From: an uncultured Chlorobiaceae bacterium
Lineage (GTDB): Bacteria > Bacteroidota > Chlorobiia > Chlorobiales > Chlorobiaceae
Direction of reading: 5' to 3'
Assembly (NCBI GenBank): GCA_903840935.1
Contig: CAIMHT010000062.1
Location: 1-44,269 of the forward strand
Length of the DNA stretch: 44,269 bases
Part shown: positions 3,675-16,488 of the stretch, in pieces
How the letters are laid out: every line of letters begins with the position of its first letter
Numbering within the stretch: the stretch's first letter is position 1
Program-made: the position numbers and the translations under genes
Notes under the pieces: model-generated
What the model saw: the letters and a program-made list of their open reading frames with translations, nothing else
Told to the model about the DNA's origin: nothing
Database searches by the model: none

Positions 3675-3899
3675 CTTATTTCGTCTCTTGCCGGTTATTT
3701 TATGATAAGCTCCCTTATGATAATTATTTATCTTAAACTTGAAATAAAGCGTGCAGTTTTTTAGCGTTTTATTTTGCAATTCTCCTGCAGGAACGCTCTT
3801 TTTGGATGTTTTATTTCCGGCAGGAAAGAATCTTGAGGAAAGAAGGAAGAATAAAAAAACAACGGTGGGGTTACTTGCGTTGAAACGGGATTAAGGGAT

Positions 3900-11663: not shown

Positions 11664-12779
11664 ATGAATCATAGTACATTTTTTATGGATAGCCAGCAGT
11701 TGACCTTGCATCGTAAAAAGTCCTTGCGTATGGTTTTAAGCAAAATGATGAGCCATGCTCTTGACGCCATTATTGTTACTGATCTTGCTGTTATCCGGTG
11801 GCTGACCGGTTTCAGCGGTTCGAGTGCGAGGCTGCTGATCACCAGAGAAAAAAGCTGGTTGTTTACCGATTTTCGATACAAGGAACAGGCCTCCCTTGAG
11901 GTTGTCTTGGCAGAAACGGTTATTGCCACTGACGGGTTTTCTGCTGAGCTTGGTTCAGGGCGTTATCCTCTCGGCGAAACGGTTGCATTGCAGTCTGATG
12001 ATGTCACTTGGCATGAAGCAACCCGACTTATCGAACAGATTCTTGGCAAACAGCGCGTCGTACCAGTTGACTCATTTTTCGATGAGTTCAGGATGCTGAA
12101 AAATGAGATTGAGCTCACAAAGATGCGTCGCGCAGCAGAAATCAGCGAGCGTGTGCTTGAGGGTGTGCTCCCCCTGATTTCCTCCTCAGTGACGGAGCTC
12201 GATATTGCCGCAGAGATTACCTACCAGCATAAAAAGCTTGGTGCGGAAAGGGACTCTTTTGAACCTATTGTGGCGGGCGGAGCGCGTTCAGCCATGCCCC
12301 ATGCAACTCCTTCCAGAGCCCGGTTCAGGCAGGGAGAGCTGATTGTGCTTGATATTGGGTGTGTCTATGAAGGGTATGCCTCCGACCAGACCAGAACCGT
12401 CGCTCTTGGTCATGTTTCCAGTGAAGCCAGGGAAGTCTATCGTATCGTGCAGGATGCGCAGGCGCTTGGTGTCGCCTCTGCGCGGTGCGGTATGATGGCC
12501 AAAGAGCTTGATGATGAGGTACGTCGCTTTATTGCCGGTCACGGTTACGGCGATGAGTTTGGCCACGGCCTTGGCCACGGTGTCGGCCTTCAGGTGCACG
12601 AAGAGCCGCGGATCAGCCCGAAAGGGGAGCATACCCTGCAGGAGAATATGCTCTTTACCATTGAGCCAGGCATCTACCTGCCCGGGAAATTCGGTGTACG
12701 CATTGAGGATACGGTGGTAATGGGGATCAATGGAGCAACTTCCCTGCAGCGCTTCAGCAAGGAGCTTATCGAATTGTAA
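11664..12779 (+). CDS. pepQ: Xaa-Pro aminopeptidase (M24 family, aminopeptidase P-like)
   Basis: M24 peptidases remove residues next to proline using two metal ions. The N-terminal creatinase-like domain (about residues 20-140) carries AIIVTDLAVIRWLTGFSGS. The C-terminal pita-bread domain holds all five metal ligands: Asp in LDIGCVYEGYASDQTRT (two), His in GHGLGHGVGLQVHEEP, Glu in TIEPGIY and Glu in VRIEDTV. The start is unclear: ATG at 11664 or 11685 gives 371 or 364 residues, and neither has a ribosome site; the frame is open to 11562. Whether it acts as an aminopeptidase or a dipeptidase (PepQ) cannot be told, so the symbol is provisional. cutA begins 16 bases downstream. Confidence 0.85.
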   Translation: MNHSTFFMDSQQLTLHRKKSLRMVLSKMMSHALDAIIVTDLAVIRWLTGFSGSSARLLITREKSWLFTDFRYKEQASLEVVLAETVIATDGFSAELGSGRYPLGETVALQSDDVTWHEATRLIEQILGKQRVVPVDSFFDEFRMLKNEIELTKMRRAAEISERVLEGVLPLISSSVTELDIAAEITYQHKKLGAERDSFEPIVAGGARSAMPHATPSRARFRQGELIVLDIGCVYEGYASDQTRTVALGHVSSEAREVYRIVQDAQALGVASARCGMMAKELDDEVRRFIAGHGYGDEFGHGLGHGVGLQVHEEPRISPKGEHTLQENMLFTIEPGIYLPGKFGVRIEDTVVMGINGATSLQRFSKELIEL

Positions 12780-12795
12780 TACGATCAATGTGAGT

Positions 12796-13134
12796 ATGAG
12801 CAGTTATTGTATGGTCATTACTACCGCTCCCAGCCGGGAGATCGCTGAAAAGCTTGCGGAAGCCATTCTTGAGTCTCGTCTCGCCGCCTGCGTTCAGATG
12901 GCTGAAATTCGGAGTTTTTATATCTGGGAAGGGGTGCTGCAAAAAGAGGGTGAAGTTGCCCTCCATATCAAGACCACAGAGACCCGATACAGCAATCTTG
13001 AAGCTTATATTCTGGAGCATCACCCTTACGACGTACCGGAAATTATCAAACTGCCGATTACTGGCGGACTGCCCGGCTATCTTGACTGGGTTGATTCGAC
13101 TACCGCTCTACCATGTAGGGACGTTGTTCGGTAA
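12796..13134 (+). CDS. cutA: Divalent-cation tolerance protein CutA
   Basis: CutA is a small trimeric cytoplasmic protein, historically linked to copper tolerance, with unclear molecular function. The 112-residue protein shows MVITTAPSREIAEKLAEAILESRLAACVQ at the N-terminus and the conserved YIWEGVLQKEGEVALHIKT and HHPYDVPEIIKLPI core, which match CutA throughout. The frame extends upstream into the peptidase gene, but the ATG at 12796 (MSSYCM) gives the family length; 12811 is an alternative. The peptidase stop lies 16 bases before it. Downstream is the holB end remnant that marks the edge of the decayed insert. Confidence 0.92.
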   Translation: MSSYCMVITTAPSREIAEKLAEAILESRLAACVQMAEIRSFYIWEGVLQKEGEVALHIKTTETRYSNLEAYILEHHPYDVPEIIKLPITGGLPGYLDWVDSTTALPCRDVVR

Positions 13135-13195
13135 GATAGGAAGTCAATGTCACCGGAGCTGGTTCAAGATAGCCAGGTGAAGAGGGAACTTTACT

Positions 13196-13291
13196 TCATG
13201 CCTTTTGCAGCAACCCTTTGATTTCGGCGGTGAAGGAGTCCATGACGAGCAGTGGGTTGGCGTTGCGTTCAATGGTGATTGGTATATTTCA
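13196..13291 (-). pseudogene. holB: Remnant of the 3' end of holB (second copy)
   Basis: In one minus-strand frame this stretch encodes RNANPLLVMDSFTAEIKG followed by LLQKA and a stop at 13198-13196. The intact holB ends RNASPLLVMTSFTAEIKG, LLLRKA and a stop at 15316. The DNA matches over about 73 bases at roughly four in five positions, then after an indel continues weakly to about 13290. It is a diverged direct copy, oriented like holB, on the far side of the ATPase/TOPRIM-like insert. It may be the original gene end displaced by insertion, or an end brought in with the insert. Confidence 0.85.
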
Positions 13292-13345
13292 GTACTAAAT
13301 GACGAGCGGATAAACGCTGATAGAGCAACATTGAGATGCACCGAA

Positions 13346-14513
13346 ATGCTGAAATTTTTTTTTATTGATAACTTCAAATCGCTTGTAGACTTTGAAGTTG
13401 AGCTGTCTCATTTCAATTGTCTGATCGGTCTCAATGGAGCAGGCAAGAGTACATTGCTACAGGCGATTGACTTTGCGTGTGCTTTGATGTTGGGTGATGT
13501 GAAGAATTGGTTAAGCAAAAGAGGGTGAGAAGCCAAAGAGCTAAACTCCTCACTGGAAGGTCTTGCCAGAAATATTACGCTTGGATTTGAGGTAGAGATT
13601 GATAACGAAAATTATCGTTGGGAGGCGGTATTTAATCGCGATAAGCTTGCCTGCACAAAAGAATCTGTTACAAGAATAAGTGATAGTGCTGTTTTATTTA
13701 GTTTAAAAGAGCAAGTTTGTCGTGGGAATTTACCTGAGCAGAAACCCTTTCGTGTTAATTTTATTGATGAAGGCTCTGTGCTATCGCGCCTGAAGCATGA
13801 CTGGTTGGGTGATGAACTTAATAATGTAGCAGTTCGCATATGTTCGCTTCGCTCAATGGATCTGTTGTCGCCTCAGTTATTGCGGAAAAAAGCAAAGAGA
13901 GCGGAAGATGGGGACATAGGAATGGGTGGAGAGCATTTGTCGGCATTTATTCATGAGTTATCCAATGAGCAGCAGCAGCAATTGCGGCAACAACTCCAAA
14001 ATTACTATCCTCAAATCTGTTCTATGAAAACAAAACCCTTGAGAGCTGGGTGGATACAGCTCGAAATTACGGAACAGTACAGTAACGGCACAATGAGCCT
14101 TTGCGCATCGTGACAGAAGCTCGTCATATCAACGATGAAATGCTCCGCTTGCTTGCTATTCTTGCCCAGCAGTTCAGTCCTCTGGAAACCTTGTTATTTG
14201 ATGAGATAGAAAATGGTATCAATCCGGAAATCACTGAACAGGTTGTTGATGCATTGGTTGTTTCTCCCAAGCAGACGATTGTCACTACCCATAGTCCTAT
14301 GGTTCTTAACTATCTCGAAGATGAAATTGCACGGCAATCTGTTACGCTTCTCTACAAGCGTCCTGACGGGCGCACGCAGGCCTGCCGCTTTTTTGACGTA
14401 CCCTCTCACAGAAACTCAATTGTCTTGCAGCAGGTGATGCCATGCTTGATCTCTCTTTGAATGATATTGCAATTGAGGCGGAGCAGATCAGGAGCGCCAG
14501 CCATGTTCTGTAA
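13346..14513 (+). pseudogene. Broken ABC/AAA-type ATPase (OLD/SMC-like, defence-associated type)
   Basis: The gene starts MLKFFFIDNFKSLVDFEVEL and has Walker A GLNGAGKST at residues 28-36, a signature-like ARHINDEMLRLLAIL, Walker B and D-loop LLFDEIENGINPE, and the H-loop IVTTHSPM. These define a predicted ATPase of the kind found in OLD, PARIS-type and similar phage-defence pairs. Three lesions break it. An in-frame TGA lies at 13526-13528. A one-base frame slip at about 14070-14110 separates the middle from the Walker B part. A second slip at about 14390-14410 puts the tail QKLNCLAAGDAMLDLSL in a third frame, ending at TAA 14511-14513. It is not expected to make a working protein. Confidence 0.85.
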
Positions 14514-14514
14514 A

Positions 14515-15264
14515 ATGGTTGTTACCGGAGAGGGAAAGAGCGATATGGGGATGTGTAATAATCAGGCGCTGGTCTGTTCAGGAGCTGATTATGACATCGG
14601 TCCTGCGACATTGTTGCTGATAAAGCTGCTGGAAAGGCATTTGCCAGCATGAAATGCTGATCAGCTTGATTTCAGTCATCCGGAATTGGTTGTTTCGTTT
14701 GCCTATAGAGAGTTTTTAAGCGAAAAAGCAAAACAGAGAAAATTAATCCGCCCGGGAAAAAATGGTGTCGAAAAAGGGTTTGTAGTACATGCCCAACGGG
14801 CAGCAGAATTGGCCTTTTATGCTATAGATCAGGGGTATCAGATAGCGGCCTATTTTCATGATACTGACGGGACTCGTCAAGAATTACAGGATGATCCTCA
14901 ACGGAGGAGATATCTGGTTAATGCCATAAATGCAGGGTTTAGTGCAGCAGAGTTTTCTGATTGCGGGTTGTCTGTTGTTCCTAAGCCAACTTCAGAAGCA
15001 TGGTTTTTATGTGCTGTAAAAACTGATCCCTATCAGCATTGCGAAGCTTTGGAAACGCAATTATCCGGAAATATCCGTTCTCCCGGGAGATCACCAAAAA
15101 TTCGTTTGGCTGAAGCGTTGGGAATTCCTGAATATGGCCGGGAAGAACTCTGTAAGATAGCCTGTTCGATAGAAATAGAGATGCTTGATATGCCAGGTTT
15201 TAACGAACTCCCTACAGACATAAAAAAAGCAATTTCTGTCATCTGTGGTACAGTCAGTGAATGA
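14515..15264 (+). pseudogene. TOPRIM-like partner of the ATPase, interrupted by an in-frame stop
   Basis: The frame runs from ATG 14515 (or 14503) to 15264, about 249 codons, with one in-frame TGA at 14650-14652. Near the N-terminus is VVTGEGKSDMG, a possible TOPRIM-type catalytic Glu. In the middle, AAYFHDTDGTRQ gives the Asp-x-Asp-Gly pair, followed by KPTSEAWFLCA. This order is like the TOPRIM-type or DUF4276/DUF4435-type nucleases that accompany ABC ATPases in split OLD-like systems. The start abuts the ATPase end (TAA 14511-14513), so the two were translationally coupled. I do not recognise the exact family, and nuclease activity is inference. The downstream 190 residues are still open and may have been functional until recently. 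Confidence 0.7.
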
Positions 15265-15315
15265 TTAAGACCCTGAAAAGAATAGGTTTCCTGATCTTCG
15301 AGATCAATGTCCGTT

Positions 15316-15388
15316 TCATGCCTTGCGCAGCAGCAACCCCTTGATTTCAGCCGTAAAGGAGGTCATGACGAGGAGCGGGCTGGCGTTG
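15316..15388 (-). repeat. Imperfect direct repeat, right copy (within the intact holB 3' end)
   Basis: This 73-base segment inside intact holB matches 13196-13268 in the same orientation at roughly four in five positions, counting a 3-base gap near the stop codon. Together the two copies bracket the 2.1-kb broken ATPase/TOPRIM-like insert, like the attachment-site duplication that elements leave when they integrate into a gene end and restore it. No integrase gene lies between them. Confidence 0.75.
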
Positions 15389-16488
15389 CGTTCGATGGCG
15401 CGGATGGCCTCTTCGGTGATGGTTGAGATTTGGAAGTAATCCGGATTGGGGAAGTTTTTTGCAAAACGATCAATGGCGTCGCTGATGTCGGGGTTGTTCA
15501 GCTCCTCAAAGTCGGGATTGATCCGGCGGTGGTTGGTGTCCTGAAAGAAAAGGAGAAGAGCGGCGAGAAAGAGGGTGAGCTCTCCGCGCGAGAGGTTTTT
15601 GGCGTTCTGCTCGGATGTGGTGATGGCTTCATGCAATCGGGTGGGGGTTAGTACCTGTCGAAGGTAGTCGAGCGCCTGGTTGCGGAGTACAATGGTTGCT
15701 GTTTCTGAAGTGTTGCTGTCGCGATTGTTGATGAACTCCCAGGCAAGCCGGAGGTTTCCTCTCGAAAAGTTGACGATAAAGCTTAACTCAGGCTCCTTGA
15801 TCTCCGGGCGGTTTTCCTGTAGCCAGAGTCGCAGCTCCTGGGCGGTAATGCGTGAAAACCTGATGGCCTGGCATCGCGAACGGATGGTTGGCAACAGCGC
15901 TTCCGGTCTTGACGAGACCAGAATAAAGAGTACATGGGGTGGTGGCTCTTCGAGCAGTTTGAGGAGCTTGTTTGCCGCCGAAGGGTGCAGCCGTTCAGCC
16001 TGTGAAATAATAAAGATCTTTTTGCTTCCCTCATCCGGCATAAACATCGCTTTATGCTGCAGGGAGATAATCTGTTCAGTCAGAATACCCATGGAACGAT
16101 CCATGGCTGGGGAAAGATAGGGGTTCTGTTTTTTTTGTTCGAGAAGGGCGTCGTATCGCTCTTTTGCATCGGTAAAGCGCTTGTTCTCTTTTTTTGCGGA
16201 GTCGCCCGCCTCAAGCAGGGCCGATTCTACCGGAAAAATATACTCGACGTTCGGATGCATGAACGACTGAATCTGCAAGCAGTCAGGGCACGACGCGCAT
16301 GAGCCTTCCTGATTGCCGGTTGCCGCATGATGGCAGTTGAGAAGAGAGGCAATTTCAAAGGCTACAGACTCCTTTCCCGACCCTTCAGGGCCGGTGAAAA
16401 GGTAGGCATGAGCAAAGCGCCCGGTTTCAAGCGCTTTTTGCAGGACACGGATCTGCTGTTTTTGACCGATAATGTTCTTCCAGCTCAT
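15316..16488 (-). CDS. holB: DNA polymerase III delta' subunit
   Basis: This is the delta' subunit of the clamp loader that opens the sliding clamp. The 390-residue protein starts MSWKNIIGQKQQIRVLQKAL, with a P-loop GPEGSGKES at about 34-42, a Cys-rich zinc module (CASCPDC at about 63-69, with an upstream Cys), KLLKLLEEPPPHVLFILVSS and TIRSRCQAIRF, the SRC motif. An inserted charged segment at about 90-125 lengthens the ATPase domain. Its final 24 codons are duplicated at 13196. The gene follows ilvE by 16 bases on the same strand, so the two probably share a transcript. Confidence 0.93.
   Translation of the reverse strand: MSWKNIIGQKQQIRVLQKALETGRFAHAYLFTGPEGSGKESVAFEIASLLNCHHAATGNQEGSCASCPDCLQIQSFMHPNVEYIFPVESALLEAGDSAKKENKRFTDAKERYDALLEQKKQNPYLSPAMDRSMGILTEQIISLQHKAMFMPDEGSKKIFIISQAERLHPSAANKLLKLLEEPPPHVLFILVSSRPEALLPTIRSRCQAIRFSRITAQELRLWLQENRPEIKEPELSFIVNFSRGNLRLAWEFINNRDSNTSETATIVLRNQALDYLRQVLTPTRLHEAITTSEQNAKNLSRGELTLFLAALLLFFQDTNHRRINPDFEELNNPDISDAIDRFAKNFPNPDYFQISTITEEAIRAIERNASPLLVMTSFTAEIKGLLLRKA

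What the first reader, a model, noticed from the sequence alone, without database searches (positions are those of the whole stretch)
13346..15264. Decayed two-gene ATPase plus TOPRIM-like module, probably a dead anti-phage system
Seen: an ABC/AAA-type ATPase with Walker A, signature-like, Walker B and H-loop motifs, coupled to a gene with EGKSD and DTDG motifs plus KPTSEAW. The ATPase has an in-frame TGA (13526) and two frame slips; the partner has one TGA (14650). Known: split OLD-like systems and PARIS pair such an ATPase with a TOPRIM-type nuclease. Inference: a defence pair that was acquired and then inactivated. The partner does not match a family I can name, so intact homologues could define a lesser-known system.
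Basis: partly seen in the sequence, partly recalled or inferred. Interest (0 to 1): 0.75.

Follow-up and report, generated by a model that had tools for sequence, protein, structure and literature searches.

The report
Broken two-gene candidate anti-phage system
A green sulfur bacterium carries a recently broken copy of a two-gene pair (an ATPase and a probable nuclease) already listed as an untested anti-virus defence candidate; intact copies elsewhere sit inside known defence operons and prophages, so the reading as a dead defence system is well founded but the kind of system is not new.

Summary
Window 13346-15264 holds two overlapping genes, both broken: an OLD-type ABC ATPase (TGA at 13526, a 1-base and a 4-base deletion, and a changed invariant signature glycine) and a partner (TGA at 14650). 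The lesions are specific to the pair: of 36 neighbouring genes compared with a relative, only the ATPase changes frame. PADLOC models name it PDC-M25A (E 1.6e-142) and PDC-M25B (1.1e-76), a putative defence candidate; I found no published test of it. Intact homologues lie inside type I BREX operons (most plasmid records), in prophages, and in the same genus. In this genus the pair sits between cutA and holB, a spot that elsewhere holds Menshen (NsnABC) or NotI-type enzymes. In four of seven genus copies the partner gene is broken; the ATPase is broken only here. The partner has TOPRIM-style motifs and strand order and a profile link to DUF4276, but two fold searches found no TOPRIM match, so TOPRIM is likely, not shown. 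Best reading: a dead copy of a PARIS-like sensor-plus-effector abortive-infection pair that is not PARIS, because it lacks DUF4435. New member of a known kind.

The parts
13346..14513 (+). PDC-M25A pseudogene: OLD-type ABC ATPase (AAA_21/AAA_15), about 390 codons
   Evidence: PADLOC PDC-M25A E 1.6e-142 over 1-383; Pfam AAA_21 3.1e-21; frame analysis
13427..13450 (+). Walker A GLNGAGKS
   Evidence: sequence; conserved in 16 homologues
13526..13528 (+). in-frame TGA in the ATPase at an otherwise invariant Trp
14089..14090 (+). first frame change: one base missing against relatives
   Evidence: nucleotide alignment with L010, L011 and L014
14137..14139 (+). signature-motif glycine, invariant in 16 homologues, is Glu here
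14191..14205 (+). Walker B LLFDE
14284..14298 (+). H-loop TTHSP
14405..14406 (+). second frame change: four bases missing against relatives
14503..15264 (+). PDC-M25B pseudogene: putative TOPRIM-like, DUF4276-related effector, 253 codons
   Evidence: PADLOC PDC-M25B E 1.1e-76; alignments
14527..14544 (+). GEGKSD motif (E10), candidate first acidic metal ligand
   Evidence: invariant G-E-G..D
14650..14652 (+). in-frame TGA in the partner; Trp in most relatives
14854..14871 (+). FHDTDG motif (D120, D122)
   Evidence: invariant D.D
14983..15003 (+). KPTSEAW motif
   Evidence: S, E and W invariant in A2
12730..13134 (+). cutA, left border of the insertion spot (gene probably starts near 12796)
13195..13275 (+). 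relic copy of the holB 3' end on the cutA side (69-nt core 86% identical to 15330-15398)
15316..16488 (-). holB (DNA polymerase III delta prime subunit), right border
   Evidence: single-frame orthologues in most of 61 genus genomes, some partial at contig ends; name from homology and own knowledge

Best explanation
This is a recently inactivated copy of PDC-M25, a mobile two-gene candidate anti-phage module. Working model: the OLD-type ABC ATPase (A) is the sensor and scaffold, and the overlapping partner (B) is the effector, a TOPRIM-like metal-dependent nuclease. A holds B inactive until it senses infection, or a phage protein that blocks the primary defence (BREX or restriction); ATP-driven change then releases B, which cuts nucleic acid and aborts the infection. 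Shown here: family identity, motifs, gene coupling, context, decay. Inferred from PARIS and OLD: sensing, release, nuclease activity, abortive outcome. In this genome both genes are broken and the module is dead.
For: PADLOC PDC-M25A/B at E 1.6e-142 and 1.1e-76. A and B adjacent, same order, in every intact or prophage homologue examined. Inside type I BREX operons in the five plasmid records of four genera that were opened, of seven found; in prophages or near phage integrases; in a TA- and TIR-rich region. At the cutA-holB spot relatives carry NsnABC/Menshen and NotI-type enzymes. Selection is purifying between lineages: dN/dS 0.10-0.17 for A, 0.13-0.30 for B. B: E and DxD conserved, strand order as in TOPRIM, DUF4276 profile link E 2.4e-5 and a DUF4276 to OLD-TOPRIM link E 7.8e-5. 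Lesions specific to the pair.
Against: No significant Foldseek match of B to any TOPRIM structure for two models, the second with pTM 0.87; no direct profile match of B to OLD-TOPRIM or to the DUF4435 protein tested. No experiment on PDC-M25 found. dN/dS gives little sign of relaxed selection in the window copy, so the decay must be recent.
Confidence: 0.68

Rival explanations
1. A PARIS (AriA-AriB) variant, a true member of that family.
For: AriA models hit the ATPase (E 1.7e-21); same two-gene layout; same BREX-embedded niche, with a PARIS-like ATPase plus DUF4435 pair in the same Oceanisphaera operon.
Against: No DUF4435 match for B in Pfam; no profile match between the B family and the DUF4435 protein of L015; PDC-M25A scores 473 bits against 75 for AriA.
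Confidence: 0.08
2. Toxin-antitoxin or element-maintenance pair: B is a toxin and A its control; defence is secondary.
For: Found on plasmids, in prophages and in a TA-rich region; Pfam AAA_21 is annotated with AbiEii.
Against: Insertion inside BREX operons is not typical of TA cargo. B is broken while A is intact in G013, G009 and G033, which fits loss of a costly effector but does not separate the two readings.
Confidence: 0.15
3. B is not a nuclease: the pair is an ATPase with a regulatory or binding partner.
For: No TOPRIM or nuclease hit in two fold searches.
Against: Conserved E, D.D and SE.W residues at the ends of predicted strands; DUF4276 link.
Confidence: 0.2
4. The lesions are assembly or sequencing errors and the pair is intact.
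For: The window is from a draft genome (85.7% complete, 100 contigs); dN/dS of A against its sister is low (0.096).
Against: Of 36 compared genes only A changes frame; a missense at an invariant signature glycine; other genus copies of B are also broken.
Confidence: 0.06

Closest known systems
PDC-M25 (PADLOC-DB putative defence candidate)
   Same: Both proteins match over nearly full length; same gene order
   Different: This copy is inactivated and stands alone between cutA and holB, not inside BREX
PARIS (AriA-AriB)
   Same: Split OLD-type ATPase plus a small effector; found in BREX operons and in P2/P4 phage elements (PMC9122126, PMC12839542)
   Different: AriB is DUF4435; the B family here shows no match to it
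HEC-01 (Hma-embedded candidate)
   Same: ATPase hits HEC-01A (1.9e-25) and all nine intact B proteins scanned weakly hit HEC-01B (best 9.7e-08)
   Different: Far weaker than the PDC-M25 match; different host operon
OLD family nucleases (Class 1, GajA)
   Same: Same ATPase type; fused ATPase plus TOPRIM logic (PMC10568477)
   Different: Two separate genes here; no direct profile match of B to OLD-TOPRIM
DUF4276 (PF14103)
   Same: hhalign E 2.4e-5 from the DxD motif to the C-terminus
   Different: Below the Pfam cut-off for intact members (best E 0.012; cut-off 30.2 bits)

Membership tests
PDC-M25 | ATPase matches PDC-M25A over its length | tested here: met
   E 1.6e-142, residues 1-383
PDC-M25 | partner matches PDC-M25B and is adjacent | tested here: met
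   E 1.1e-76; genes overlap by 11 bases
PDC-M25 | open reading frames (a working system) | tested here: not met
   two stops, two frame changes, one signature missense; intact copies exist in G005, G022, G077
PDC-M25 | anti-phage activity | not testable with these tools
   no paper in the library names PDC-M25; most PDCs still await validation (PMC12988326)
PARIS | AAA_15/AAA_21 ATPase above threshold | tested here: met
   AAA_21 77.2 bits, AAA_15 53.8 bits
PARIS | partner with DUF4435 (at least 27 bits in PMC9122126) | tested here: not met
   no DUF4435 hit at E up to 10 in nine intact members
OLD nuclease family | OLD-type ABC ATPase motifs | tested here: met
   Walker A, signature, Walker B, H-loop
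OLD nuclease family | TOPRIM domain | tested here: inconclusive
   motifs and strand order agree; no PF20469 match and no fold match; indirect profile chain
BREX accessory module | located within a BREX operon | tested here: not met
   window flanks are cutA and holB; a PglZ gene of this genome lies on another contig

The most novel reading that the evidence does not exclude
PDC-M25 is a guard module of its own, parallel to PARIS: embedded in BREX it senses phage anti-restriction proteins and fires a DUF4276-like effector, a further type of OLD-partner enzyme. Where the module is carried without BREX the effector gene is the part lost first, leaving an idle ATPase.
Probability: 0.25. Interest if true: 0.6.

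Novelty: new member of a known kind. Interest (0 to 1): 0.35.

Why it matters
It moves an unnamed pair to a named but untested candidate and adds context that raises the odds it is a real defence system: BREX operons, prophages, and one chromosomal spot shared with Menshen and NotI-type enzymes. It also gives a small natural series of intact and broken copies in one genus, useful for asking which half is costly to keep. The cutA-holB spot may be a place to look for further systems in Chlorobiaceae.

Tried and rejected
Pfam, NCBIfam and PHROGs gave no family for B (Pfam DUF4276 sub-threshold). PDB sequence searches with B profiles: no relatives. Two AlphaFold models of intact B (pLDDT 73.8 and 84.8) and Foldseek against PDB and BFVD: no significant match. 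Phage records by tblastn: none. E. coli genomes with the Moellerella pair: none. Genome-contig scan: only near-identical Chlorobiaceae copies. TGA as Trp recoding was rejected: relatives have Trp codons and there are also two frame changes and a signature missense. Programmed frameshifting was rejected: relatives are in one frame. dN/dS as a clock of decay was not informative. In one search three further 'violations' near the ATPase end came from a wrong frame in my script and are disregarded. In one search a script error left the window row empty; one search replaces it.

Full report
What is there. Two overlapping plus-strand genes lie between cutA and holB. The first (13346-14513) is an OLD-type ABC ATPase with Walker A, signature region, Walker B and H-loop; the second (14503-15264) has GEGKSD, FHDTDG and KPTSEAW motifs. 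The ATPase has one in-frame TGA, a one-base and a four-base deletion relative to relatives, and a Glu at a signature glycine that is invariant in 16 homologues; the partner has one TGA. Both stops are at codons that are Trp in relatives (in most of them for the partner).

Are the lesions real? When 36 genes from the contig of relative G077 were aligned to the window, only the ATPase needed more than one frame. Random assembly error would not single out this gene. dN/dS is 0.096 between the window ATPase and its sister G033 and 0.174 against G077; the partner shows 0.295 against G077; holB shows 0.126. So the pair was under purifying selection and decay is recent. These pairwise values are not branch-specific and the window copy is mosaic (13564-13853 is about 97-100% identical to G033, most of the rest 78-97%), so I draw nothing finer from them.

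What it is. PADLOC-DB names the genes PDC-M25A (E 1.6e-142) and PDC-M25B (E 1.1e-76). PDCs are putative candidates from a guilt-by-embedding screen and most await validation (PMC12988326). No paper in the library mentions PDC-M25. Pfam and NCBIfam know the ATPase only as generic AAA_21/AAA_15-type and do not know the partner.

Where intact pairs live. Plasmids: 7 records. Five were opened and show the pair inside type I BREX operons: between brxC and pglX in Oceanisphaera and two Moellerella plasmids, between pglX and pglZ in Azotobacter and Acinetobacter. A further Moellerella plasmid (H4) was not opened; its match has the same identity, score and length as that of H3, so I expect the same context. 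The Hydrogenimonas plasmid has the pair outside BREX, next to an HNH gene. Viral contigs: next to P2-like genes (L103, L104, L110), beside a large terminase (L105), near integrases (L106, L111), with a Zot-like filamentous phage gene (L107), among tail genes (L112); phage types are my reading of the neighbouring proteins, not a search. In all of these the ATPase precedes the partner; in L105 the ATPase is in two frames.

In the genus. The pair is in at least seven genomes: intact in G005, G022 and G077; ATPase intact but partner with a TAG in G013; ATPase intact but partner broken off after about 57-65 codons in G009 and G033, where the joined sequence recurs elsewhere in those genomes and so looks like insertion sequences, although contigs end there; and both broken in the window. 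G074 keeps a fragment of the partner fused into another frame. G005, G022 and G013 copies are near-identical and may count as one lineage; G009 and G033 likewise. The partner is thus broken in four of seven, the ATPase in one of seven. Loss of a costly effector is one reading; small numbers and draft genomes limit it.

The spot. In 41 genomes with cutA and holB on one contig the gap is 12-153 bases in 29 and 0.7-3.9 kb in 12; in the window it is 2.2 kb. Cargo includes PDC-M25 (window, G077, and on contigs with cutA only in G009 and G033), NsnABC, the Menshen genes (G019, and by sequence G033; PADLOC 7e-104, 3e-99, 1e-85 for G019), paired NotI-type proteins (PF12183 scanned in G012; the same proteins by eye in G013, G036, G017, G066, G002, and one in G027), and non-defence genes: MFS transporters, TMEM175, radical SAM. 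So it is a general insertion spot with a good share of defence cargo, not an exclusive defence site. The link of NsnABC to the name Menshen is from my own knowledge; the paper PMC10952713 describes Menshen as a DUF262 gene with an OLD nuclease, which fits the GmrSD_N and AAA_15 genes seen here.

How it probably works. The nearest worked examples are PARIS, where the AriA ATPase senses the anti-restriction protein Ocr and the AriB effector shuts the cell down (PMC9122126, PMC12839542), and fused OLD nucleases (PMC10568477). A 2026 survey describes OLD-ABC plus TOPRIM pairs as backup effectors of BREX (PMC12839542). By analogy A senses and B acts. For B as TOPRIM: conserved Glu after strand 1 and D.D after strand 3 in the order strand-helix-strand-helix-strand-helix-strand; a profile link to DUF4276 (E 2.4e-5), a weaker DUF4276 link to OLD-TOPRIM (E 7.8e-5 over 39 columns), and a DUF4276-type protein of G018 matching both Pfam families. 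The E-values from pairwise hhalign are for one comparison, not a database search. Against: no significant Foldseek match for two models, including one with pTM 0.87, and no direct profile match to OLD-TOPRIM or to a DUF4435 protein. I put TOPRIM-like at about 0.65.

Membership. It is PDC-M25 by profile. It is not PARIS: the DUF4435 partner, a defining feature, was tested and not met. It is not a BREX part in this genome: no BREX gene flanks it, and the one PglZ gene found lies on another contig.

Novelty and value. A decayed copy of a catalogued, untested candidate: a new member of a known kind. The useful additions are the BREX and prophage contexts with intact pairs, the shared insertion spot, and the unequal loss of the two halves.

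Noticed in passing
window 13135-15316 and the cutA-holB gap of relatives (L051, L053, L054, L059-L064, L070, L071, L074, L079, L080, L083): The cutA-holB gap is a variable insertion spot in this genus: PDC-M25, Menshen (NsnABC), paired NotI-type proteins, MFS transporters, TMEM175, radical SAM genes.
   Followed up: partly
window 13195-13275 and 15315-15398; L052 683-750; L051 about 3724-3810: Imperfect copies of gene ends border the inserts: a holB end on the cutA side in the window (86%), and a cutA end near holB in G009 and G033, whose full cutA lies on another contig. This suggests repeated cassette exchange; mechanism not worked out.
   Followed up: partly
L013 partner gene (TAG); L010 and L011 partner gene: The partner gene is broken in several relatives while the ATPase stays open; in G009 and G033 by different repeated, IS-like sequences joined at nearly the same base.
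   Followed up: partly
L012 3798-5416: A second AAA_21 ATPase with a small unmatched partner lies in the same island as the intact pair, among TIR, PemK and ParE genes.
   Followed up: no
L099 (own genome contig C72): A PglZ gene (659 aa) with unscanned neighbours suggests a BREX or related locus elsewhere in this genome.
   Followed up: no
window 13564-13853: Near-identical (97-100%) to G033 and G009 while much of the rest is 78-97%, a sign of recombination within the ATPase gene.
   Followed up: no
L015 12393-14272: The Oceanisphaera BREX operon carries both PDC-M25 and a separate ATPase plus DUF4435 (PARIS-like) pair.
   Followed up: no
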